A DNA stretch of 64,000 bases from Limnochorda sp. LNt (GTDB taxonomy: Bacteria; Bacillota; Limnochordia; Limnochordales; Geochordaceae): positions 1,116,001 to 1,180,000 of the forward strand of contig NZ_CP141614.1 in NCBI RefSeq assembly GCF_035593265.1. The letters are read 5' to 3'. Position numbers and translations under genes: made by a program. The notes below the pieces were generated by a model. That model did no database searches, was not told the DNA's origin, and saw nothing but the letters and a program-made list of their open reading frames with translations. Shown here one piece after another: positions 13,500 to 64,000 of this stretch (the first letter of the stretch is position 1; each line of letters starts with the position of its first letter).

Positions 13500-13524
13500 G
13501 CCGGCCCTGTCCGTGGTATCATAC

Positions 13525-13557
13525 GGCGTGGCCCGCTCTGGCCGGGCGGGCCACGCC
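13525..13557 (+). promoter_or_regulatory. 12-bp hairpin between pstS and msrAB
   Basis: GGCGTGGCCCGC (13525-13536) pairs perfectly with GCGGGCCACGCC (13546-13557), 9-base loop. TATCAT at 13517-13522, just before it, resembles a -10 box, so the hairpin could be the very 5' end of the msrAB transcript. It could equally end the pstS transcript, although no T-run follows. Confidence 0.45.
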
Positions 13558-13599
13558 AAAGCTCCCGCCTCGTGGGCGGGGCGCAGGGGAGAGAGGACC

Positions 13600-14556
13600 G
13601 TGGGGGAGCGGCAGGAGGCGACCTTCGCCGGGGGGTGCTTCTGGTGCATGCAGGCGGCCTTCGATGGCCTCCCCGGCGTCGAACGGGTCGTCGCCGGCTA
13701 CACCGGGGGCCATGTCGAGGCGCCCAGCTTCGAGCAGGTCGAGACCGGCGAGACCGGTCACCGCCAGGCGGTGCGGCTCACCTTCGATCCCGAGCGCATC
13801 GCCTACACGACGCTGCTGGCGCGCTTTTGGCGGCAGATCGACCCCACCGATCCCGGCGGGCAGTTCGCCGAGCGGGGGCCGCAGTACCGGACTGCCATCT
13901 TCTACCACGACCAGGCCCAGCGACAGGCAGCCGAGGCCTCGCGCCAGGCCCTCGAGGCCAGCGGCCGCTTCGAGCGCCCCATCGTCACCGAGATCCTGCC
14001 GGCCGTCCCCTTCTACCCGGCCGAGGCGCGCCACCAGGCCTACCATCGGCGCCACCCGCTGCAGTACGCGCTGTACCGGGCGCGCTCCGGGCGCGACGAG
14101 TTCATCCGACGGGCCTGGAGGCGGGCCGACGAGCGGGCGGCCCTGCGCGGCCGGCTCGACCCCCTCGAGTACGCGGTGACGCAGGAGAACGCCACCGAGC
14201 CCCCCTTCCGCAACCGCTACTGGGACAACCGCCGCGAGGGCATCTACGTCGACGTGGTGTCGGGCGAGCCGCTCTTCAGCACCCGGGATCAGTACGACGC
14301 GGGCTGCGGCTGGCCCAGCTTCACGCGGCCCCTGCACCCCGAGAACGTCCTCGAGCTGGTCGACACGAGCCACGGCATGATTCGGACCGAGGTGCGCAGC
14401 CTGCAGGCCGACTCGCACCTGGGCCACGTCTTCGACGATGGCCCCCCGGAGGCAGGCGGACGGCGCTACTGCATCAACTCCGCGGCGCTGCGCTTCATCC
14501 CCAAGGAGGACCTGGAGAAGGAGGGCTACGGGGAGTACCGCAAGCTCTTCGACTGA
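13600..14556 (+). CDS. msrAB: Fused methionine sulfoxide reductase MsrA-MsrB
   Basis: 318 residues. The N-terminal MsrA domain has catalytic Cys13 in [21 protein letters not shown], and [10 protein letters not shown]. The C-terminal MsrB domain (about 185-318) has CGWPSF and catalytic Cys291 in [12 protein letters not shown]. The enzyme repairs both S- and R-methionine sulfoxides using thioredoxin. The GTG at 13600 with AGAGGA upstream is chosen over an upstream extension rich in Arg/Gly. The MsrB part lacks the paired CxxC zinc motifs of some homologues, which is common in fusions. Its 3' end overlaps the 3' end of mnhG on the other strand by 31 bases. Confidence 0.93.
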
Positions 14557-25809: not shown

Positions 25810-26379
25810 TCAGACGCCGGCCGGAGCGGCTCGCTCTCGCAGCAGATGGGCGAAGGCTCGCCTCATCTTGGCCAGTTTGGGCGCGATGACCAGCTGGCAG
25901 TAGGGCTGGAAGGGGTTGCGCTCGTAGTAGCGCTGATGATAAGCCTCGGCAGGATAGAAGCGCTCGAAGGGGACCACCTGTGTCACGATGGGCGCCTCCC
26001 AGACGCCCTCGCGCTCGAGCCGCTGGATGACGCGCTCGGCGGCTGCCCTCTGCTCGGGCGAGTGGTAGAAGATGACGGAGCGGTACTGGGGCCCCACGTC
26101 GGCGCCCTGCCGGTCGGGGGTCGTCGGGTCGTGGATGGCGAAGAAGATCTCCAGGATCTGCTCGTAGCGGATGACCGACGGATCGAAGGTGACCTGCACC
26201 ACCTCGGCGTGCCCCGTGGTGCCCGTGCAGACCTGCTCGTAGGTCGGGTGCTCCACGTGGCCGCCTGCGTAGCCGGAGACCACCGCGTGCACCCCCTTGA
26301 CACCCTGGAAGGCCGCCTCCAGACACCAGAAGCAGCCGCCGCCGAGGGTGGCCACCTCACGACGCGCACCGGTGCTCAT
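25810..26379 (-). CDS. msrA: Peptide-methionine (S)-S-oxide reductase MsrA
   Basis: 189 residues. Catalytic Cys in GGGCFWCLEAAFQGV, then GYAGGHVEHPTYEQVCTGTTGH, and QYRSVIFYHSPEQ. A C-terminal YERNPFQPYCQLVIAPKL provides a candidate resolving Cys. ATG 26379 follows GAGGAGG. It reduces the S-epimer of methionine sulfoxide and is a second MsrA beside the MsrAB fusion. It is monocistronic, with the hypothetical gene divergent. Confidence 0.93.
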   Translation of the reverse strand: MSTGARREVATLGGGCFWCLEAAFQGVKGVHAVVSGYAGGHVEHPTYEQVCTGTTGHAEVVQVTFDPSVIRYEQILEIFFAIHDPTTPDRQGADVGPQYRSVIFYHSPEQRAAAERVIQRLEREGVWEAPIVTQVVPFERFYPAEAYHQRYYERNPFQPYCQLVIAPKLAKMRRAFAHLLRERAAPAGV

Positions 26380-26557
26380 CGCATCCGACCTCCTCGGCGG
26401 TAGCATACCCGATGGGCTCACCCCCCGCCGGACGCCTCCGAAGGCCTCGGCCGTGCAATGGACGTGCAGCAGGCGGTCCACCAAGGGGGGAGGGAGCCCC
26501 TCCGGCGGCGGCGAACTCCCCCCCGCACCCGGGCCATGCCCGAGAGGGGGCCAGCGC

Positions 26558-52282: not shown

Positions 52283-52349
52283 GCACCGAGCGACGGGGGC
52301 CGGACCGCGCCCGTGCGGCGCCATGCTGGCGAGAGCCACCCGTCACCCT

Positions 52350-52355
52350 TATAAT
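52350..52355 (+). promoter_or_regulatory. TATAAT box 10 bases before the Fur-family start
   Basis: A perfect -10 hexamer ends 9 bases before ATG 52365. Transcription would start about 2-3 bases before the ATG, giving a nearly leaderless mRNA. The -35 region 17 bases upstream (TGGCGA) is poor. Confidence 0.45.
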
Positions 52356-52364
52356 GACGCGAGC

Positions 52365-52907
52365 ATGGTGCCCGAGCGATTCGACGAGATGGCCGGGTGG
52401 CTGAGGGCGCACGGGCTGCGGCCCAGTTCACCACGCATCGCGGTGCTCTCGTTCCTCGAGCGGCGAGGCCAGCACCTGACGCCCTACGAGATCTACGAGG
52501 GCCTGCGGGCGGCGGGAGCGCCCGTCAGCATCGCCACCCTCTATCAAAACCTGCAGGCGTTGAGCCGCCACGGCCTCATCAAGCGCATCGTGGGGCCCGA
52601 CGGGGCGGTGCGCTACGACGTCAACCTGGCGCCGCACCACCACCTGGTCTGCGAGCGATGCGGCCGCCTGGTCGACGTGGGGCTGTCAGGGCCGCTGGAC
52701 GTGCGGCCGGTGCTGCTCTCCCGTCACGGTCTGGAGCAGGAGCCGCCGCTGGATGCGGCAGGGGCCGGATGGCGCATCCAGGGGGCGCAGGTGGAGTTTC
52801 GTGGGACGTGTCCCGACTGCAGCCAGCGCACGACCTCGCCGGGCACGAAGCGACGGCGCCGCACCAGCCAAGGGCCGACCAGGCGCCGGCAGCGTCCGAC
52901 GACGTGA
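52365..52907 (+). CDS. perR: Fur-family regulator, PerR-like
   Basis: 180 residues. Winged helix RPSSPRIAVLSFLERRGQHL and PVSIATLYQNLQALSRHGLI, then regulatory-metal residues in NLAPHHHLVCERC and two structural zinc pairs CERC (96/99) and CPDC (149/152). A basic tail (KRRRRTS) extends it. PerR-type function (peroxide sensing by metal-catalysed His oxidation) is favoured by the adjacent convergent manganese catalase with a PerR/Fur-box palindrome upstream. ATG 52365 is chosen as the conserved start; an upstream ATG at 52323 would place the -10 box inside the gene. Confidence 0.85.
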   Translation: MVPERFDEMAGWLRAHGLRPSSPRIAVLSFLERRGQHLTPYEIYEGLRAAGAPVSIATLYQNLQALSRHGLIKRIVGPDGAVRYDVNLAPHHHLVCERCGRLVDVGLSGPLDVRPVLLSRHGLEQEPPLDAAGAGWRIQGAQVEFRGTCPDCSQRTTSPGTKRRRRTSQGPTRRRQRPTT

Positions 52908-52990
52908 CCCGCGACGAGCGGGGCTCCGGGGTGTCGCCCCAGAGCCCCGCCCGGTGAAGGAGTGCACGCAGCCGAGCGTCGGCGGCCGGC

Positions 52991-53872
52991 TCAGGATGCC
53001 AGGCGTCGGGCCAGGTCGGCCAGCACCTGCGGGTCGACACCCGGTGCGAACTCCTCCGGCACGTCGGGCAGCACGGGCACGGGCCCGCCCTCGGGAGGCC
53101 CGTCGACCACCTGGAGCGTGCCCCCGTCGGGAGCCGGGCCCCGCCAGATCTTGCCGATCTCCTGGTAGTCCTGCGGGCTGAAGCGGTACAGCGCGCGATG
53201 GACGCCCGCCTCCTCGAACTTGCGGGCCTCCGGGAACTTGCTGTTTTCGATGTTGGGGATGGGCAGCATCTTGGAGACATCGACACCCGTGAGGCTCTCC
53301 AGGGCCTTGGCATAGGCCAGGGCATGGACGCCACCCCGCACCAGCAGGTAGCCTATCATCTGGCGGGCCACGGGGTTGCGGGTCATCTCGTAGACCCGGA
53401 TCTTCTGGAGCCGGGCCCCATTCTCCAGGAAGAAGTTGTGGAGCAGGTCCAGCACCAGGTTGCCGCTGGAGAAGACGTAGTCGCCTCGCCAGGACCCGCC
53501 CATCGAGTCGCCCACCAGGGCGGTCTGGCCCGTTGCGATGAAGTGATGGGTGTTGCGGAGCGACGCGGCACGCGACAGCGGTGCCTCGTCGGGAGCTCCC
53601 GGGCTCGTCGAGCCCGACAGCAGCGCATTGACCGTGGCGGCCACCAGCTCGATGTGGCCCAGCTCCTCGGTGGCGATGTTGGCGATGAGGTCGTAGTAGG
53701 GCTTCAACTTCTCGCGGCCGCGGAAGTTGAAGGACTGGTACATGTAGTTCATGAGGGTCGACATCTCGCCGAACCGTCCGCCCAACAGCTCCTGGACGGC
53801 CGCCGCGGCATTGGGGTCGGGCTCCTGGGGGTGCGGCAGGGCGACCTGCAGGCGATCGACACGCAGGAACAC
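52991..53872 (-). CDS. Manganese (non-heme) catalase
   Basis: 293 residues. Mn ligands Glu36, Glu70, His73, Glu150 and His183 are all in place, with spacing close to the Lactiplantibacillus plantarum enzyme (35/66/69/148/181). Segments: FGEMSTLMNYMYQSFNFRG, IATEELGHIELV and LLVRGGVHALAYAKALE. It splits hydrogen peroxide without heme and is usually thermostable. GTG 53872 has GGAGGT 8 bases upstream. It is convergent with the PerR-like gene and has a PerR/Fur-box palindrome just upstream. Confidence 0.95.
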   Translation of the reverse strand: MFLRVDRLQVALPHPQEPDPNAAAAVQELLGGRFGEMSTLMNYMYQSFNFRGREKLKPYYDLIANIATEELGHIELVAATVNALLSGSTSPGAPDEAPLSRAASLRNTHHFIATGQTALVGDSMGGSWRGDYVFSSGNLVLDLLHNFFLENGARLQKIRVYEMTRNPVARQMIGYLLVRGGVHALAYAKALESLTGVDVSKMLPIPNIENSKFPEARKFEEAGVHRALYRFSPQDYQEIGKIWRGPAPDGGTLQVVDGPPEGGPVPVLPDVPEEFAPGVDPQVLADLARRLAS

Positions 53873-54050: not shown

Positions 54051-57000
54051 ATGCCACCGACTCTCGCGCGCCTGGCGACCTGGACGCTGCTGGCCCTCGC
54101 GGCGACAGCCACGGTGGGCCCGGCGGGACGCGCCGAGCAGCCGGATGCCGGCGACCGCCCCGCCGCGTTGCGCATCGATGGGGAGAGCGTCTGGCATCTT
54201 CGCTTCGCGCTGGGCGACGCCGACTCCATCCCCGGGGGCTCGGACCTGTTCGCCAGCGGCGTGCCGACCCTGGAGCAGCAGCTGCGGCTGCGCCTCGAGG
54301 GGGACGTGGCTCCGGGCGTGACGGTCTCGGCCGACCTCGACAACGTCCGCAGCGACAACCTCCAGCTGCTGGGGGTCGACATCCGGTGGGCTCACGGCGT
54401 GCTGCACCTGGGCGACCTGCAGCTGCGCTCCCAGAGCCGTTACGCGGCCAGCCCCGCGGCCCTCATCGGGGCCCGGGTCGAAGCCCAGTGGGGCGACTTC
54501 TCCCTGACCGGCCTCGTCGGCCGTGCACGGGGCATCCCCGCCACCAAGACCTTCGTCGGGCAGAGTAGCGAGGAGGTCGTCGAGTGGGTCATCGGCGGCA
54601 GCGGCGGCGAGCGGCCGCCCTATGCCCCCTCGCTCGGGGACGGCGCCGTGATGGTGGCCGACGCTCGCGGTGCCCAGGGCTTCCGGCTCAACCGCCCCTT
54701 CGACGCGGACTTCGTGCGGGTATGGTGGGTGCCTGTGGAGGAAGGGATGGCGCCGGCATGCGGGACCTCCGCTCCCGGCGTCACACTGTCGCAGCTGCTG
54801 GCCGAGTACCGGCTCGACTTCCTGCTCTACCGACCGGGGCAGCCAGCCGGCCAGGTGGGGGTCCTGGTGCCGCTGTCGAGCGGGGACGAAGCCCGGGAGC
54901 CGCCATGGTTGCCTCCCCAAGAGGCAGGCCGCACCTACTTCCCCCTCGAAGCCGGACAGCTGGTCGGCCTCGCCTCGCCGGATGCCGAGGCGCCCGGGTA
55001 CGTGCTGCTCCGCCTGGAGTCGATGGATCTGCTGCGGGCGCACGTCGAGGCGCTCATCCGCCGCTACAACCTCCAAAACGGCTTGAGCGGCCCCACCCAG
55101 CGGCAATACCCGCTGGTGCGGGGCAGCACCTCGGAGGCCCAGTTCCTGCAGCGGCTGCGCCTCCACTACCTGCTGTGGGCGGGGCTCGGGCCGCATCCCG
55201 GCGGCGACGGTTGGGTGGCGGCCGCCGACGGACCGGTCTCCCTGGACGCGCTCGGCACCTGCCCGCACTTGCGGGAGCGCCTGGGTTTGGGAGCGTCCAA
55301 CGAGGTCGACGGCTCCGAGCCGGGCGGCCCCGAGGCACCGCTCTACCTGCTGGGGCGGGGCGAGATCGATCCCACATCGCTGGAGCTGCAGGTGCGCTTG
55401 CCGGAGGGGCGGCTGGAGCCCGCGGAGGATCGGGGCATCGGCTGGCGCCTCTACGCCGAGGAGGGCGTGCTGCAGCTCCGGTACCCGGGCCAGGTCGCCG
55501 AGCTCCTGGCGCCGGGGGGCGATCTGGCGGCGCTGCGCGTGCGGTACCGCTACAGCGTCAGCCAGGGCGTCTACTTCCTGGGCACCTCCATCGCGGTGGG
55601 CAGCGAGCGGGTCTACCTGGACGGGGCCCTGCTCCAGCGCAACGTGGACTACCTCATCGACTACGAGCTCGGCATCCTGACCCTCCTGCGGGAAGTGGGG
55701 CCTGCCAGCCGCCTGACGGTGCAGTTCGAGTACTTCCGTGGCGGACTGGGGGCCAGTGCCGAGTACAACCGCAACATGCTGGGTCTCGAGGCCCAGTGGG
55801 CGCCGGCTGGGGACGAGGGGCCCTGGCGGCTGGTCGGAGGCCTCTTCGTCGAGGCGGACGAGCCCCGCCCGCTGGTGGAGCCCGAGCGCGCCCGCACCAT
55901 GCCCAACACCCACGTGGTGGCGGCTCTGCGCGGCTCGTACGGGGCCAGCGGCCCCACGGGAGCAGAGGGCAGCGGCCAGGGCTGGTGGGGGCAGTGGGAC
56001 CTGGCGTGGTCGTACGACCGGTTTCCCATCGACGACAACCTCCGCGACCACCAGGCCAACCGGGTCCACGCCGTGACGGGAAGCGCCGAGGGCGACCCGT
56101 CGTCGGGGACGGCGAAGGCACCACTGGTCATGGTGGGGCACGGGGCCGGGTTGACGGTGCTGCGGTTGGAGCCGAGCGGCGAGACGACAGCCCATCTCTA
56201 CACCACCGCTCATGGCTTGAGCGGCCTCACCGTGCGGGCCATCGCACCGGCCGTCCCAGGCACGATCTCGGATGGGAGCGACGGCGCGTCGGCCTTCTCG
56301 AGCCCACCCCTGGCGTGGCTGCTGGCGACCGAGTCGGGGCTGACGGTGGTGCTCAATCGCCCGGGGGAGGAGACGCCCTCCCTCGATCTGACGGCCAACT
56401 GGCTGCGTCGCTACACCCACCACGGTCTGCCGTCCAACGACGTGCACGACGTGCTCTACATCGGCCGTCAGGTCACGACGCCGGAGCGCATGTCAGGCTC
56501 CGTCTGGGTGGCCACGTCCCGGGGTCTGGCGTGGGCGCCGGCTACGGATCTCGAGGCTGCGGCGGTGCTCGCCTCCGTCGCGGCCGACGACGTGCTGACC
56601 TCCTGGCGATCCTGGGAGAGCCTGCCGGGCTCCACGGAGCCCCTCGATCTGCGCGACCTCGCCGTGGTGGCAGGGAGCGGGGACGAGGTGCCCATCATCC
56701 TCCTGGCGGCGTCCTCGGAGGGCCTGCTATGGCTCTGGTGGCCCGACGACCCCAGCGCGGCCGAGCCGACCGTGCACCGCATGCCCCTGGGTCCGCTGCG
56801 GCGGGTGGCCGGCATCGTCCGGCCGGGGGAGGGGGAGGCCCCCTCGACGGTGAGGCTGTTCGCCGGCACCGACAAGGGCCTGCTCTACGTGGACGTGCTG
56901 GCGACCATCGCGGCGGGTGGCCGCCCCAACCTGCAGGTGCTGGACGGCCCGCACCCCGTCTCGGGCATCGCCGGTGCGGTCCATGCCCTCCAGTGGCAGA

Positions 57001-58811
57001 CCGAGGAGGACGCCGCCGGGGGCCCATCCCTTTGGGCCGCGACCGACGCCGGCCTCTACCGGGTCGACCCGGGGAGACCCGGGCAAGACGAGCCAGCGTC
57101 GCTGGCGCAGGGGTCCTTCACGGCGGTGGGGCTGGGCGCCTCTCCCGCCGGCGGCTCACCGACGACCCTCTGGGCCGCCGGGTCTCCTCCGGTGGGAGGG
57201 CCGTCCCTTTGGTGGATGGACCGCGGCACCCTCGGGACATTTCAGGTGCCCGCGGAGGAGCTGCCGGCCCAAGATCCGGCGCGCTTCCAGGACCCGCCCA
57301 CGGTGCGTGAGCGTACGGGCATGGCCGGGCAGGTGGCGCTCGGTTACGGATGGGGCACCGGCGGCGTCGACTTGCGCTACGAGCGCGTCGAGCCCTCGTT
57401 TCGGGCCATCAATGACACCCGTCGCCAGTGGCTCGACGGCTGGGAGGTGACGCTGCGCCAGCGCCTGACCGAGAGCCTGGACGTCGTGCTGGCGCGCTCG
57501 GATCGGGTCAGCGCCGATCCCGAGACCGGCCGTGCCCAGCGCAACGTCGTCGAGCGCGGCGAGGCACGCTGGCAACTTCCCCTGCCGGCTCCGGCCACGT
57601 GGGCTTCGGCGCCAGCCCTGCGGGCGACGCTGCAGCGCTCGCGGCTGGACAGCGACGAGGCGCGGCCGGGCTTCGAGGCCACCACCCTGACCCGGGGGCT
57701 GCGCGTCGAGCAGCGACTCTGGCAGGAGCGGATCGTGCTGGCGGCCGGCTACGAGCAGGTGAGGCACCAGGAGGTTCGACGCGCCGGGTACGTGTCGCAC
57801 AACCTGGTGGCCGACCTGTCGGCCGTGCTCTTGCCGGACACCCGCTTGACGGTGCGCTTCAGCTATCCCCTCAAGGTGACGGAGGCCCACGGCGGCGATC
57901 CCCCCCGCATGGAGGGGAGCCAGCAGCTCCAGGTGGGAGCAACGGCCGCCCGCTCGTTCGGCCCGGTTCGCACGTCCGTGACGCTGGGTCAGCAGTCGGG
58001 ATGGCGGGTGACCGGTGAGGGCACGTCTCCCGAGCGGGCGGGCAGCCAGGCGACCCTGTCGGTGGCGGCCGAAGAGATGACCGTCGCCGGGTGGCGCCTG
58101 CAGCCCAGCGGCCGACTGGGCTACACCCGCACCGACAGCGCCCGCAGCCAGTCCACCGGCCTGGCCGTCAACGGCGGGCTTCGGGCCCGCTGGGCCCCGG
58201 CCGCGCTCGAGATGGCCCTCAGCGCCGACCGCCAGTACCAGTGGGCCGTCTTGCCCTCGACCAAGCAGACCCGGCAGGACCGGGCCGAGCTGACGTTGCG
58301 GAGCCGGGCCTGGTCCGGCATCGATCCCTCGCTTACCCTGCGGGTCGATGATCGACGGGCCGTGGCTGTCCCGGATGGGTGGAGCACCCAGACCCTGCAG
58401 CGCAGCGCCTCGGTGCGCGTGGGGTGGGCGCAGGCGTCATGGTGGCCACAGGAACTGCGGCTGAGCGCCGGTACGACGGCCTCCACCCAGCCCCCCGCCG
58501 ACAGCCGCCGTGTCGGGGCCGCCTACGTGCTGACCCTGCGTCCGGGTGGCCCGTGGGAGCTGGCCACGACGCTGGAGGGCGAGGGCGGCGACGCAACCCG
58601 CTCGGGCCAGGCACGCCAGCCCCACTGGCGGATCTCGGTGCAGGGCAGGCTCGACCACCGCCTCTCCGGACAGTGGAGCGGGACCCTCGCGCTGGGGCAC
58701 GCCCGGGGCGTACGCGATCCGCTCTCGTCCATCACCGGCAGTGTCGGTTACCTGGAGCCCCGGCCCTTTGCGGTGAGCTGGGCAGAGCTCTCCGTCCGCG
58801 CCCGGTTTTGA
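54051..58811 (+). CDS. Very large exported protein: propeller inserted before a C-terminal beta-barrel-like region
   Basis: 1586 residues. Signal peptide LATWTLLALAATATVGPAG. Residues about 40-650 are beta-rich with GVYFLGTSIAVGSERVYLDG and YLIDYELGILTLL, a pattern seen in large surface/outer-membrane proteins of the SprA type. About 690-1090 shows propeller-like repeats (TTAHGLSGL, THHGLPSNDVHDVLY, SVWVATSRGLAW), close to two-component-regulator propeller motifs. About 1100-1586 is alternating polar/hydrophobic strands (LRVEQRLWQERIVLAAGYEQ, LTLRSRAWSGIDPSLTLRV) and the protein ends in Val-Arg-Ala-Arg-Phe. The terminal Phe and strand pattern suggest an outer-membrane barrel. ATG 54051 has only a weak ribosome site. 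Function unknown. Confidence 0.75.
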   Translation: MPPTLARLATWTLLALAATATVGPAGRAEQPDAGDRPAALRIDGESVWHLRFALGDADSIPGGSDLFASGVPTLEQQLRLRLEGDVAPGVTVSADLDNVRSDNLQLLGVDIRWAHGVLHLGDLQLRSQSRYAASPAALIGARVEAQWGDFSLTGLVGRARGIPATKTFVGQSSEEVVEWVIGGSGGERPPYAPSLGDGAVMVADARGAQGFRLNRPFDADFVRVWWVPVEEGMAPACGTSAPGVTLSQLLAEYRLDFLLYRPGQPAGQVGVLVPLSSGDEAREPPWLPPQEAGRTYFPLEAGQLVGLASPDAEAPGYVLLRLESMDLLRAHVEALIRRYNLQNGLSGPTQRQYPLVRGSTSEAQFLQRLRLHYLLWAGLGPHPGGDGWVAAADGPVSLDALGTCPHLRERLGLGASNEVDGSEPGGPEAPLYLLGRGEIDPTSLELQVRLPEGRLEPAEDRGIGWRLYAEEGVLQLRYPGQVAELLAPGGDLAALRVRYRYSVSQGVYFLGTSIAVGSERVYLDGALLQRNVDYLIDYELGILTLLREVGPASRLTVQFEYFRGGLGASAEYNRNMLGLEAQWAPAGDEGPWRLVGGLFVEADEPRPLVEPERARTMPNTHVVAALRGSYGASGPTGAEGSGQGWWGQWDLAWSYDRFPIDDNLRDHQANRVHAVTGSAEGDPSSGTAKAPLVMVGHGAGLTVLRLEPSGETTAHLYTTAHGLSGLTVRAIAPAVPGTISDGSDGASAFSSPPLAWLLATESGLTVVLNRPGEETPSLDLTANWLRRYTHHGLPSNDVHDVLYIGRQVTTPERMSGSVWVATSRGLAWAPATDLEAAAVLASVAADDVLTSWRSWESLPGSTEPLDLRDLAVVAGSGDEVPIILLAASSEGLLWLWWPDDPSAAEPTVHRMPLGPLRRVAGIVRPGEGEAPSTVRLFAGTDKGLLYVDVLATIAAGGRPNLQVLDGPHPVSGIAGAVHALQWQTEEDAAGGPSLWAATDAGLYRVDPGRPGQDEPASLAQGSFTAVGLGASPAGGSPTTLWAAGSPPVGGPSLWWMDRGTLGTFQVPAEELPAQDPARFQDPPTVRERTGMAGQVALGYGWGTGGVDLRYERVEPSFRAINDTRRQWLDGWEVTLRQRLTESLDVVLARSDRVSADPETGRAQRNVVERGEARWQLPLPAPATWASAPALRATLQRSRLDSDEARPGFEATTLTRGLRVEQRLWQERIVLAAGYEQVRHQEVRRAGYVSHNLVADLSAVLLPDTRLTVRFSYPLKVTEAHGGDPPRMEGSQQLQVGATAARSFGPVRTSVTLGQQSGWRVTGEGTSPERAGSQATLSVAAEEMTVAGWRLQPSGRLGYTRTDSARSQSTGLAVNGGLRARWAPAALEMALSADRQYQWAVLPSTKQTRQDRAELTLRSRAWSGIDPSLTLRVDDRRAVAVPDGWSTQTLQRSASVRVGWAQASWWPQELRLSAGTTASTQPPADSRRVGAAYVLTLRPGGPWELATTLEGEGGDATRSGQARQPHWRISVQGRLDHRLSGQWSGTLALGHARGVRDPLSSITGSVGYLEPRPFAVSWAELSVRARF

Positions 58812-59027: not shown

Positions 59028-59165
59028 AACGGGTCATTGGAAGCGCGTGCGAACCCTGGAGTACATTGGGAGTTGAATGGATCCCGACGGTCCAGAACCG
59101 TGCAAGGTCGGGTCGCAACCTGTCGAAGTGTTGAATCTTGATCTTTGAAACGGGGGGTTGTCGAC

Positions 59166-62100
59166 GTGGCGGCTGCGCGACCCTGGGATGGCCCTCATCG
59201 GCCGGTGCCCTGCGCTCGCAGGCTCCGTCCGTCGCTCGTGTCATGGCTCTCGATGGCTCTCGTCGGGCTGCTGCTCGCGGCTGGCGGACCGACGGTCCAG
59301 GCCGCGGACGTCTCGCCCCCCGAAAAGGAGCGAAGCGCCTGGCAGAGCGGGGCACTGGAGTACCACCCCGGCCGCGTCATCGTGCGCTTGCGCGACGACA
59401 TGGCGGGAGCCGCTGGGGTACAGGCGCTGAGGGATCTGGGCTATGCCGTGGCCCGTCCGGTGAGCTTCCGGCCTTCCGCGGACTTCCCCGACGGGTTGAC
59501 CCTTTACGTCGTCGATCTCCCCGAGGGCCAGACGGCCGAGCAGGCCGTCGGCCGGCTGAGCCAGTCGCCAGGCGTGCTGTACGTGGAGCGGGACTGGAAG
59601 GTCTACAAGGACCAGGCCGTGCTGCCACGCCAGGCCGTCATGCCCGACGATCCTGCCTTCATGGCCGGCGCCATGTGGGGGCTCCACAACCAGGAGATCC
59701 CGGAGCCGTACGTCGACCCGTACATGGTGGGCGAGCCGGTGGACGACGCCGACATCGACATGCCGGAGGGCTGGGTTCGACACACCGACTCGAGCCAGGT
59801 CATCGTGGCCATCATCGATACCGGGGCCTACGTGCAGCACCCCGACCTCGCGGACAACATCTGGGTCAACGAGGCCGAGCTCTACGGCCAGCCCGGCGTG
59901 GACGACGACCAAAACGGCTTCGTCGACGACCTCCACGGGTGGGACTTCTTCAACAACGACAACTCGGTCTGGGATCCCGACGAGCGTGACATCTACGGGT
60001 ACCTCAACGACGAGCACGGGACCCACGTGGCCGGCACCATCGGCGCCCTGACCGACAACGGCATCGGTGTCGCCGGCATCAACTGGCGCATCCAGATCAT
60101 GGTCCTCAAGTTCCTGGGGCCTCAGGGCGGCTACACGTCGGATGCCATCCGGGCCCTGGCCTACGCCTCGGCCAACGGCGCCATGCTCACCAGCAACAGC
60201 TGGGGAGGGGGCGGCTTCAGCCAGGCCCTCAAGGATGCCATCGAGGCCTCGGGCATGCTGTTCGTCGCCGCGGCGGGCAACAGCAACGCCAACAACGACT
60301 CGACGCCTCACTATCCGTCGAGCTACGACTCCCCCAACATCGTCGCGGTGGCCGCCAGCATGCAAAACGACCAGCGAGCCAACTACCCCGGCTGGTGGGG
60401 ATCCAACTGGGGGGCGCGGAGCGTCGATCTGTTCGCGCCCGGCGGCTTCATCCTCTCCACCGTCCCTCCCGACCCACCGCCCGCCCCGGGCGAGCCGCCC
60501 GAGGAGGCGTACGCCTTCTTCTACGGGACGTCCATGGCCACGCCGCACGTGACGGGCGTCGCCGCGGCCCTCATCGCCATGCACCCTGATCTGCCGCAGT
60601 ATCCGGGCGCGCCGGGGTGGACGCCAGGCAGCCCCAGCATCAAGGAGGTCATCCTCCAGACCGTCGACCGCAAGCCGCAATTCGAGGGGCTGGTCTCGAG
60701 CGGTGGCCGTCTCAACGCGGCCCAGGCCCTGGCCATGTCGTTGCCGCCGGTCATCGTCGAGGCCACGGCCGAGCCTACCGAAGGTCCACCGCCCCTCGCC
60801 GTCTCCTTCTCGGCCCAGGCTACCGACCCCGACGGTGAGGTGGTCGACGTCTGGTGGGACTTCGGGGATGGGTCGGAGCCCGTACATTCCGATGAGGTCG
60901 TCCACACGTACCAGGAGCAAGGCAACTTCGAGGCCACCTTCCACGCCGTCGATGACAGCGGGCTGGAGTCGGTGGCGGTGATCCCCATCCGGGTCCTTCT
61001 GCCGCCGGACATCGAGGTGTCGCCGATCTCGATGGACGTCCATCTCGACTGGGACCAGAGCGAGGACCGTACCCTCGCCATCGCCAACCGCGGAGAGGGC
61101 CCCCTCCACTGGACCGTCGGCATCGTGCCGGGTGAGGGGCCGTCGGCGCCAGCCTCGGGGACGGCCGTCGATGTGCGGGCGCTGGAGCTGGCCAAGGAGG
61201 AGGCCGACCCCCGCGTCAATCCTCCCCAGCCCTATGGCCGGGGTGGGCCGGACGAGTACGGCTACGTCTGGATCGACAGCGACGAGCCCGGCGGCCCCCG
61301 GTTTGAATGGCTGGACATCCGCGCGTCGGGCGTGCGCCTGCCCATCACGGGGGATGACCAATCCGCCGACGTCGACTTGCCCTTCCCGTTCCCCTTCTAT
61401 GGGGAGCTCAAGAGCCGCGTGCGCGTCTCATCCAACGGCTATCTCACCTTCGGCACCTTCGGCACGGACTGGAGCAACGATCCCATCCCCTCGACCGCCC
61501 AGCCCAACGACCTCATCGCCGTCTTCTGGGACGACCTGACCCTTTCGCAGGGCAACGTCTACGCCTGGGGGAGCCCCGAGGAGGGCATCTTCATCGTCCA
61601 GTACGACGGGGCTCGGCGGCTCGGCACCCTGCAGCGCTACGACTTCCAGGTCATCCTGCGGGCCGATGGATCCATCGTCATGCAGTACCTCCTCATGGAG
61701 CCGGGGCGGCTTGACGAGGCCACCATCGGCATCGAGGATGCTTCGGGCCAGACAGGGTTGCAAGTGGCCTTCAACCAGGCGTACGTCCACAACGAGCTGG
61801 CCGTGGGCATCTACCCGATGTGGGTATCAGCCTCGCCGGTGCAGGGTACCGTCCAGCCGGGCGAGGTGGCCGACGTGACCCTGACCTTCCAGGCTCTGCG
61901 CCTGCCCGAGGGCGAGTACCCGGCCACCGTCGTGGTGCGCAGCGACGACCCGGACCAGCCCGAGGTGTCGGTGGCCACGAGGCTGTTCGTCAACGCGTTG
62001 CAGCCGCCGGTCATCGAGCAGATTGCCGCGCAGCCTTGGGCCGGCGCCGCGCCGCTGGAGGTGCACTTCTCGGCCCAGGTGCGAGACCCTGACGGGCAGG

Positions 62101-64000
62101 TCGTCTCGGTCCTCTGGGATTTCGGCGACGGCAGCGACCCCGTCTCCGGCACGCTCGACGTGGTGCACGTGTACGAGGTCGAGGGGGAGTACGAGGCCAC
62201 GTTGACCGTGGTGGACGACGAGGGCTTGACCGCCAGCGCCTCCGTCCCCATCGTCGTCCGCCCCCAGCCGTCCATCTCCGTGGAGCCGCCTTCCTTCAGG
62301 GCCTTGGTCCGGGCCCACCGGATCCGCACCGAGACCCTCCGGATCGAAAACACGGGGGAGGCGTCGCTCGAGTACACCATCCGCGTCGAGACCTCTCAGG
62401 GCACGGCGGCCGTGCCGGCGGAGGATCTGCCCCCATGGGAACCCGGCAGCAAGGAGGCCGTCGACCCGCGGGGCGGCCGGTTGCACCCCCAGGGCTTCGG
62501 CGGGCCCGACGCGTTCGGCTACCTGTGGCGTGACAGCGACGAGGCCAGCGGCCCGGCCTTCGAGTGGGTGGAGATAAGCGGCGTCGGCACCCGTCTTCTC
62601 CTCTCCGAGGACGGCTTTGAGAGCGTCGAGCTGCCCTGGCCCTTCCCCTTCTACGGCCAGGAGAAGCAGCACGTGGTCATCTCGGCCAACGGCTACCTGA
62701 CGTTCGGCACGACGGGCGGGGACTACACCAACGACCCGATCCCGTCCTCCTCGACGCCCAACGACCTGCTCGCGGTCTGGTGGGACGACCTCAGCCCCCA
62801 GCGAGGAGACGGGGCGGTCTACTACCACCACGATCCCGTGGGCGACCGGTTCATCGTCCAGTGGACCGACGTGCAGCGGTACCCCGGCCGGGGATCCCAC
62901 ACGTTCCAGGCCATCCTGTATCCTGACGGCCGCGTCGTCTACCAGTACCTCGAGATGGCCTTCGGACAGCCTGGCGATGAGGCCTCGGCCACCGTCGGCA
63001 TCGAAAACGCCGACGGCACCGATGGGCTCGAGGTGCTGTTCAACGCAGCGGGCTACATCCACGATGGGCTCGCCATCGCCTTCTGGCCCTACCGGTGGCT
63101 GGCGGTGGAGCCGCAGGCCGGCACCGTGGAGCCCGGCGAGGCCGCCGACGTCGAGGTGGTCATGGACCTGACGCCCGTCGCTGGCGGCATCCTCAATGGG
63201 GTGCTGATCGTCGAGAGCAACGACCTGTCGCAACCCCAAGTCCGGGTGCCGGTGCAGGTGGAGGTGCTGGCCAACCAGCCACCGGTCATCGACGCGGCCG
63301 GCGTCAACCCGTCGCGGGGCCCCTTGGGCACCACGTTCCAATTCGTGGCCGCTGCCAACGATCCCGATGGCTCCATCGCCGACGTCTACTGGGACTTCGG
63401 GGATGGCAGCGGCCCCGTCCATGCCTTCGTGGCCACTCACGCCTATGCGAGCGAGGGCGTCTACACCGCCACCTTCACCGCTGTCGACAACGATGGGTAT
63501 CGCAGCTCGGCCAGCGTGACGGTGCGGGTGCAGCAGACCCCCCAGGCCCGCTGGGCACCCCGTCAGCTCTTCATGGAGGTGGCGGCCGGACAGTCGACGT
63601 CGGCGACGCTGACCCTGAGCAACGACGGAGCCGGCCCCCTGGTCTTCGGCTCGGCGGAGGAGGGGACCCGGTGGGTTGCCACGCCCGAGCGGCTCGTGGC
63701 CCCGCATGAGGTGCAAGAGCCCGACACCAGGACGGCCGAAGGGATGTACGCACCCAATCCGGACCCCGATCGCTCCCCCTGGCTGCCCGAGGCCGTGGGC
63801 GACGTCATCACCTCCTGGCCGGCTCCGGCGCCCATCGGCCTGGCTTGGGGCGTCGGCGTCAACTGGCGGACCGGGCATCTGGTCATCTCGGACCCTGATC
63901 TCCTGCAAGACTTCGTGGTGCCGCCCGACGGCAGCGCGCCGGTCGCGAGCTGGCCCACCCCGTGGGCGGGCGCCTGGCCTGGCGACATGGCCTTCGACGG
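59166..64000 (+). CDS. Secreted subtilisin-like (S8) protease with tandem PKD-containing units (3' end outside window)
   Basis: The frame is open from GTG 59166 (GGGGGG 8 bases upstream) to the window edge, over 1600 codons. A signal/anchor helix lies near 25-45 (WLSMALVGLLLAAGG). An I9-like propeptide spans about 60-145. The S8 domain spans about 200-510 with Asp218 (IIDTGAYVQHPD), His284 (EHGTHVAGT), Asn344 and Ser456 (YGTSMATPHVTG). PKD domains begin near 528, 950 and 1373 (DPDG..V..WDFGDG). Each of the first two is followed by a BACON/ASH-like strand module and a domain with WxDSDE, FPFPFYG and SNGYLTFGT. The last visible part resembles an NHL/propeller start. It is probably an exported protease for protein scavenging or surface display. 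Confidence 0.92.
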   Translation, partial: MAAARPWDGPHRPVPCARRLRPSLVSWLSMALVGLLLAAGGPTVQAADVSPPEKERSAWQSGALEYHPGRVIVRLRDDMAGAAGVQALRDLGYAVARPVSFRPSADFPDGLTLYVVDLPEGQTAEQAVGRLSQSPGVLYVERDWKVYKDQAVLPRQAVMPDDPAFMAGAMWGLHNQEIPEPYVDPYMVGEPVDDADIDMPEGWVRHTDSSQVIVAIIDTGAYVQHPDLADNIWVNEAELYGQPGVDDDQNGFVDDLHGWDFFNNDNSVWDPDERDIYGYLNDEHGTHVAGTIGALTDNGIGVAGINWRIQIMVLKFLGPQGGYTSDAIRALAYASANGAMLTSNSWGGGGFSQALKDAIEASGMLFVAAAGNSNANNDSTPHYPSSYDSPNIVAVAASMQNDQRANYPGWWGSNWGARSVDLFAPGGFILSTVPPDPPPAPGEPPEEAYAFFYGTSMATPHVTGVAAALIAMHPDLPQYPGAPGWTPGSPSIKEVILQTVDRKPQFEGLVSSGGRLNAAQALAMSLPPVIVEATAEPTEGPPPLAVSFSAQATDPDGEVVDVWWDFGDGSEPVHSDEVVHTYQEQGNFEATFHAVDDSGLESVAVIPIRVLLPPDIEVSPISMDVHLDWDQSEDRTLAIANRGEGPLHWTVGIVPGEGPSAPASGTAVDVRALELAKEEADPRVNPPQPYGRGGPDEYGYVWIDSDEPGGPRFEWLDIRASGVRLPITGDDQSADVDLPFPFPFYGELKSRVRVSSNGYLTFGTFGTDWSNDPIPSTAQPNDLIAVFWDDLTLSQGNVYAWGSPEEGIFIVQYDGARRLGTLQRYDFQVILRADGSIVMQYLLMEPGRLDEATIGIEDASGQTGLQVAFNQAYVHNELAVGIYPMWVSASPVQGTVQPGEVADVTLTFQALRLPEGEYPATVVVRSDDPDQPEVSVATRLFVNALQPPVIEQIAAQPWAGAAPLEVHFSAQVRDPDGQVVSVLWDFGDGSDPVSGTLDVVHVYEVEGEYEATLTVVDDEGLTASASVPIVVRPQPSISVEPPSFRALVRAHRIRTETLRIENTGEASLEYTIRVETSQGTAAVPAEDLPPWEPGSKEAVDPRGGRLHPQGFGGPDAFGYLWRDSDEASGPAFEWVEISGVGTRLLLSEDGFESVELPWPFPFYGQEKQHVVISANGYLTFGTTGGDYTNDPIPSSSTPNDLLAVWWDDLSPQRGDGAVYYHHDPVGDRFIVQWTDVQRYPGRGSHTFQAILYPDGRVVYQYLEMAFGQPGDEASATVGIENADGTDGLEVLFNAAGYIHDGLAIAFWPYRWLAVEPQAGTVEPGEAADVEVVMDLTPVAGGILNGVLIVESNDLSQPQVRVPVQVEVLANQPPVIDAAGVNPSRGPLGTTFQFVAAANDPDGSIADVYWDFGDGSGPVHAFVATHAYASEGVYTATFTAVDNDGYRSSASVTVRVQQTPQARWAPRQLFMEVAAGQSTSATLTLSNDGAGPLVFGSAEEGTRWVATPERLVAPHEVQEPDTRTAEGMYAPNPDPDRSPWLPEAVGDVITSWPAPAPIGLAWGVGVNWRTGHLVISDPDLLQDFVVPPDGSAPVASWPTPWAGAWPGDMAFD

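What the first reader, a model, noticed from the sequence alone, without database searches (positions are those of the whole stretch)
54051..58811. Giant protein joining an SprA-like region, a propeller and a C-terminal Phe-ending beta-barrel-like region
If the last 500 residues form an outer-membrane barrel, this organism of apparent Bacillota affinity has a diderm envelope. The insertion of a propeller before a barrel is an architecture I do not recognise.
Basis: inference. Interest (0 to 1): 0.65.

Follow-up and report, generated by a model that had tools for sequence, protein, structure and literature searches.

The report
SprA-like secretion gate with inserted propeller
A bacterium of the Bacillota that has an outer membrane carries a large SprA-like outer-membrane protein beside a giant protease bearing a type IX sorting tag and a PorV-like shuttle, which points to a type IX-like protein exporter in a branch of life where the literature read here says none exists.

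Summary
The ORF is real (54051-58811, 1586 aa, intact) and conserved in Limnochordia and other diderm Bacillota. It is a distant homologue of SprA, the type IX secretion (T9SS) outer-membrane translocon. A profile of its N-terminal core has SprA as its only significant PDB match (E 3.8e-14, three co-linear segments). A beta-propeller of the HTCS type (residues ~692-1070) sits between predicted barrel strands, and the C-terminal ~500 residues model as long beta-strands ending in Phe. BamA, TamB, Skp and Lpt genes are present, and Limnochordia are diderm by microscopy.

The larger finding is the neighbourhood. Downstream on the same strand lie a 3513-aa subtilase ending in a T9SS type A-like sorting domain and a PorV-family barrel. 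In loci fetched only for the SprA-like gene, cargo, PorV-like and SprA-like genes are adjacent in 10 of 13. In 398 genomes of the phylum the SprA-like gene tracks BamA (26 of 28; p = 7e-15). GldL, GldM and the PorU catalytic part were not found, though those searches lacked a positive control.

Best reading: a SprA/PorV/CTD export module that works like the T9SS translocon, with a propeller built in. Secretion itself is inferred, not shown.

The parts
54051..58811 (+). SprA-like outer-membrane protein with inserted propeller, 1586 aa
54165..54530 (+). N-terminal beta region (res 39-160), about seven predicted strands; aligns with SprA 146-267
55533..55730 (+). SprA-like domain (res 495-560, motif SERVYLDG...DYLIDYELG), the most conserved segment across the class
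55773..56018 (+). four amphipathic strands (res 575-656) between the SprA-like domain and the propeller
56124..57260 (+). beta-propeller of HTCS/Reg_prop type (res ~692-1070)
57309..58808 (+). C-terminal strand-rich region (res ~1087-1586), predicted rest of the outer-membrane barrel
58782..58808 (+). C-terminal outer-membrane-protein-like signal ELSVRARF with terminal Phe
59145..64000 (+). S8 subtilase with PKD repeats, proposed cargo; continues outside the window to 69,686 (3513 aa) where its C-terminal sorting domain lies; a PorV-like gene follows (about 69,740-70,669)

Best explanation
The gene encodes the outer-membrane channel of a T9SS-like export module. Proposed working: the cargo (here a giant subtilase) crosses the inner membrane by Sec; its C-terminal sorting domain is recognised at the SprA-like barrel by a PorV-like shuttle; the shuttle takes the cargo out to the cell surface. 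Each cargo gene carries its own PorV-like partner, so shuttles appear dedicated, as PorP/SprF-like shuttles are for type B cargo in Flavobacterium. The inserted propeller probably caps the channel or docks cargo or surface glycan; by strand counting (7 + 4 strands before it, an odd number) it would be extracellular. Shown here by sequence: homology of all three parts to T9SS counterparts, their genetic linkage, and co-occurrence with an outer membrane. Inferred: secretion, recognition, propeller role, sidedness, barrel size (roughly 33-36 strands). Unknown: the energy source.
For: SprA-like core profile: SprA is the only significant PDB hit, E 3.8e-14, co-linear. PorV-like profile: the PorV chain of the SprA-PorV complex is the only significant PDB hit, E 4.8e-11; 15 of 15 match PorV_fam, some over its curated cut-off. 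Sorting-domain profile: top PDB hits are the PorU C-terminus (4.5e-8), the T9SS CTD bound in the translocon (4e-4) and, after one ice-binding protein at a similar score, PorZ (8e-4); 22 of 22 match TIGR04183, including the window's cargo over the cut-off (24.2 vs 23). Of 13 loci fetched only by the SprA-like core, 11 have an adjacent PorV-like gene and 10 an adjacent sorting-domain cargo. In one family PorV-like and SprA-like genes are divergent neighbours. In G000 both genome-wide sorting-domain hits are directly followed by a PorV-like gene. SprA-like gene vs Omp85 in 398 genomes: 26 of 28 against 76 of 370, Fisher p 7e-15.
Against: Score against the SprA equivalog model is far below its cut-off (38 vs 200 bits). 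Motor proteins GldL and GldM were not found in G000 or convincingly in 20 relatives, and PorU matches cover only its sorting domain; no control genome was a positive for the motor, so these negatives are not calibrated. FlgD-like Ig domains and FadL/PorV-like barrels also occur outside secretion systems. Structure models are of moderate or poor confidence. No experiment.
Confidence: 0.7

Rival explanations
1. The SprA-like barrel is homologous to SprA but exports or inserts something else (lipid, glycan, or outer-membrane proteins), and the protease and PorV-like genes are merely co-regulated surface proteins.
For: Short propeller-free homologues in one family (829 and 868 aa) sit next to TamB-like genes (judged by eye), not next to PorV-like or cargo genes. 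The best fold match of the model is the lipopolysaccharide exporter LptD, E 4e-8, ahead of SprA at 1e-6.
Against: By sequence profile only SprA is matched, not LptD. The three-gene linkage recurs in many families with rearranged order, and cargo plus PorV pairs also occur away from the SprA-like gene, one translocon serving several cargos.
Confidence: 0.2
2. The PorV-like barrel alone anchors or exports its neighbouring protease, and the C-terminal domain is a structural Ig domain bound by it; the SprA-like protein is unrelated.
For: Nearly every sorting-domain gene found in the Limnochordales has its own PorV-like neighbour, more tightly than it has the SprA-like gene.
Against: In the window's order, sorting-domain hits and SprA-like gene co-occur (8 of 9 vs 0 of 5 genomes, p 0.003), and in the wider phylum the three genes form one cluster.
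Confidence: 0.1

Closest known systems
SprA/Sov, T9SS outer-membrane translocon of Bacteroidota (6h3i, 8gl6; TIGR04189)
   Same: Co-linear homology of the N-terminal core, large strand-rich predicted barrel, linked PorV-like partner and sorting-domain cargo
   Different: About 1590 instead of about 2400 residues, homology detectable only in the N-terminal core, HTCS-like propeller inserted, below the family cut-off, found in Bacillota
PorV/PorQ family shuttle proteins (NF033709)
   Same: Family match in 15 of 15, 6h3i_F as only significant PDB hit, linked to cargo
   Different: One PorV-like gene per cargo, next to it; in Bacteroidota one PorV serves all type A cargos (PMC12618676)
T9SS type A sorting domain (TIGR04183)
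   Same: 22 of 22 match; conserved GPNP...GRLV...W.L..G.PLA.GLYLY...RLVI.R end
   Different: Several score only just over the cut-off; carried by few proteins per genome (2 in G000, about 8 in G005)
PorP/SprF shuttle with type B cargo pairs
   Same: Cargo gene directly followed by its own shuttle gene
   Different: Shuttle is of PorV family and the tag is type A-like
PorZ of Porphyromonas (5m11)
   Same: HTCS-like propeller in a T9SS protein; weak profile match, E 4e-4
   Different: PorZ is a separate surface protein with its own sorting domain; here the propeller is inside the translocon, and it is closer to HTCS propellers (E 6e-30)

Membership tests
SprA/Sov equivalog (TIGR04189) | score over the curated cut-off of 200 bits | tested here: not met
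   38 bits in the window protein, 0 of 73 class genomes over the cut-off
SprA/Sov equivalog (TIGR04189) | homology to SprA sequence | tested here: met
   family profile vs PDB: SprA only, E 3.8e-14, three co-linear segments
SprA/Sov equivalog (TIGR04189) | very large outer-membrane barrel (36 strands) with lateral gate | tested here: inconclusive
   AlphaFold: long strands, pLDDT 58.8; N-terminal part 46.3; strand count about 33-36; gate not testable
Type IX secretion system | PorV-family shuttle | tested here: met
Type IX secretion system | cargo with C-terminal sorting domain | tested here: met
Type IX secretion system | GldL/GldM motor | tested here: inconclusive
   no convincing match in 21 genomes, but no positive control among the control genomes
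Type IX secretion system | PorU sortase | tested here: inconclusive
   only the C-terminal sorting-domain part of the PorU model is matched; no positive control rang over the cut-off
Type IX secretion system | PorK/GldK, PorN/GldN, SprE/PorW, SprT/PorT | not tested
Type IX secretion system | secretion of tagged cargo through the barrel | not testable with these tools
   needs experiment
HTCS/Reg_prop propeller | sequence homology to HTCS periplasmic propellers | tested here: met
   3v9f E 6.3e-30, 4a2l E 3.8e-28
Diderm envelope | Bam, Tam, Skp and Lpt genes | tested here: met
   microscopy of Limnochordia in PMC11456536

The most novel reading that the evidence does not exclude
Diderm Bacillota possess an export system built on a SprA/PorV/sorting-domain core without the GldLM motor, meaning that the core of type IX secretion is older or more widely spread than the Bacteroidota and its relatives and can run on another energy source, with a propeller-bearing translocon as a lineage-specific variant.
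Probability: 0.45. Interest if true: 0.9.

Novelty: new variant of a known kind. Interest (0 to 1): 0.77.

Why it matters
Papers read here state that T9SS genes are confined to Bacteroidota and related FCB phyla and absent elsewhere (PMC11285876, PMC4793230). A linked SprA-like, PorV-like and sorting-domain module in diderm Bacillota would reopen where type IX secretion came from, give a smaller system for asking which parts are essential, and make the question of what powers it without GldLM directly testable in cultured Limnochordia. It also proposes an export route for very large surface proteases in a little-known group. The novelty claim rests on a search of open-access papers only.

Tried and rejected
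Alignment A2 contained an ABC transporter row by mistake (one search shows it), so matches that rest on it are not used; the clean alignment A6 replaces it. Pfam alone gave nothing on the target. LptD as identity: best fold match but no sequence match, so kept only as a rival. PorZ as source of the propeller: matched only weakly. AlphaFold of residues 24-700 was too poor for a fold search. The full-length protein exceeds the folding limit, so no single model contains all proposed barrel strands.

Full report
What is there. The window lies in a single-contig genome of 3,019,339 bases. Relatives fetched with titles are Limnochordaceae MAGs, so the organism belongs to the class Limnochordia; the paper on Geochorda and Carboxydochorda describes diderm cells with an outer membrane (PMC11456536). 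The named ORF is intact, has coding-type base composition and full-length homologues in several genera.

Anatomy. The order is: signal peptide (seen by eye); an N-terminal beta region with about seven predicted strands (res 41-160); an insert with a conserved helix; the SprA-like domain (res 495-560); four strands (res 575-656); a propeller (res ~692-1070); and a strand-rich C-terminus ending in Phe. Propeller-free homologues exist in the class and phylum (829, 868, 906, 805 aa and about 1280-1390 aa) and share the N-terminal region followed directly by the SprA-like domain. The propeller is present at the same place in at least ten more distant homologues. It is related to periplasmic propellers of hybrid two-component systems, E 6e-30, and weakly to PorZ, E 4e-4.

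Relation to SprA. A profile of residues 39-672 from 13 homologues finds SprA of Flavobacterium as its only significant match among all PDB chains, in three co-linear segments (SprA 146-267, 419-470, 695-789; E 3.8e-14). The AlphaFold model of residues 420-1586 (pLDDT 58.8) gives 22-23 long C-terminal strands, with LptD first and SprA second in the fold search; TM-scores are low and the model is not good enough to fix the strand number. Seven N-terminal strands, four before the propeller and 22-25 after it give about 33-36; SprA has 36 (PMC10994853). This count is an inference.

Neighbourhood. The next gene on the same strand is a subtilase of 3513 aa (59145-69686, partly outside the window). 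Its last 85 residues match the T9SS type A sorting domain model at 24.2 bits against a cut-off of 23. The gene after it belongs to the PorV/PorQ family (E 2.3e-22, 80 bits, cut-off 90); relatives exceed that cut-off. A second cargo and PorV-like pair lies at about 2.176 Mb in the same genome; these are the only two sorting-domain genes found genome-wide, and each is followed by a PorV-like gene. In G005 (genome of 3.817 Mb) about eight cargo and PorV-like pairs are scattered and one SprA-like gene is present.

Linkage tested without bias. A search of 398 genomes of the phylum with the SprA-like core found 28 genomes. Thirteen of these loci were fetched on that basis alone. Eleven have an adjacent PorV-like gene and ten an adjacent sorting-domain cargo, mostly in the order cargo, PorV-like, SprA-like on one strand with small gaps. 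Two lack neighbours: one sits on a 5.6 kb contig (G084), and the other locus (G107) has neither. In another family the PorV-like and SprA-like genes are divergent neighbours. Profiles of the PorV-like proteins and of the tags have T9SS proteins as their best PDB matches.

Envelope. The genome has a cluster with TamB, Omp85 with POTRA (BamA), OmpH/Skp, LpxD, LptF/G and an LptC-like gene. Across the 398 genomes, 26 of the 28 with the SprA-like gene have Omp85, against 76 of the other 370 (p 7e-15). The two exceptions are a weak 29-position match (G101) and an incomplete MAG (G425). These genomes are related to each other, so the p-value overstates independence.

What is missing. GldM and GldL models gave no convincing match in 21 genomes, and the PorU model matched only through its sorting domain. 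None of the control genomes served as a positive for the motor, so absence is provisional. Other T9SS parts were not searched.

Verdict. All three parts of the T9SS translocation step have homologues here, and they are linked. That supports 'works like the T9SS translocon'. Membership is not claimed: the SprA equivalog cut-off is not met and motor and sortase are unproven. Papers read here state that T9SS genes are absent outside Bacteroidota and related phyla (PMC11285876, PMC4793230), and no paper in the library joins type IX secretion with Limnochordia. The novelty judgement is limited to that open-access library.

Noticed in passing
L029:1290-3770 and L031:7063-9657: Short propeller-free SprA-like proteins (829 and 868 aa) lie near TamB-like genes (recognised by eye) and not near PorV-like genes.
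   Followed up: partly
L139:7682-10096 and L140:5088-6875: Two SprA-like proteins carry a FlgD/sorting-domain-like Ig domain at their own N-terminus, ahead of the SprA-like core.
   Followed up: partly
L108:5888-11742 (G000 at about 2.176-2.182 Mb): Second cargo and PorV-like pair in the same genome, cargo of 1625 aa.
   Followed up: partly
L068:4350-7358 and L111:2-5840 (G068): A genome placed in another family of the class carries the propeller-type SprA-like gene and a cargo and PorV-like pair; completeness is 75% with 5% contamination, so a contaminant contig is possible.
   Followed up: no
window 52323-53872: Fur-family regulator convergent with a manganese catalase just upstream of the target gene.
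   Followed up: no
window 13513-14553 and 25813-26484: Two proteins with the GGCFWC motif of methionine sulfoxide reductase A, judged by eye.
   Followed up: no
L064 and L065 (isolate Bu05): Both copies of the SprA-like gene in this MAG are broken by frameshifts at different places, probably assembly errors.
   Followed up: no
L033:14319-16694: 792-aa protein in the outer-membrane cluster that looks OstA/LptD-like by eye but has no Pfam match at E 0.001.
   Followed up: no
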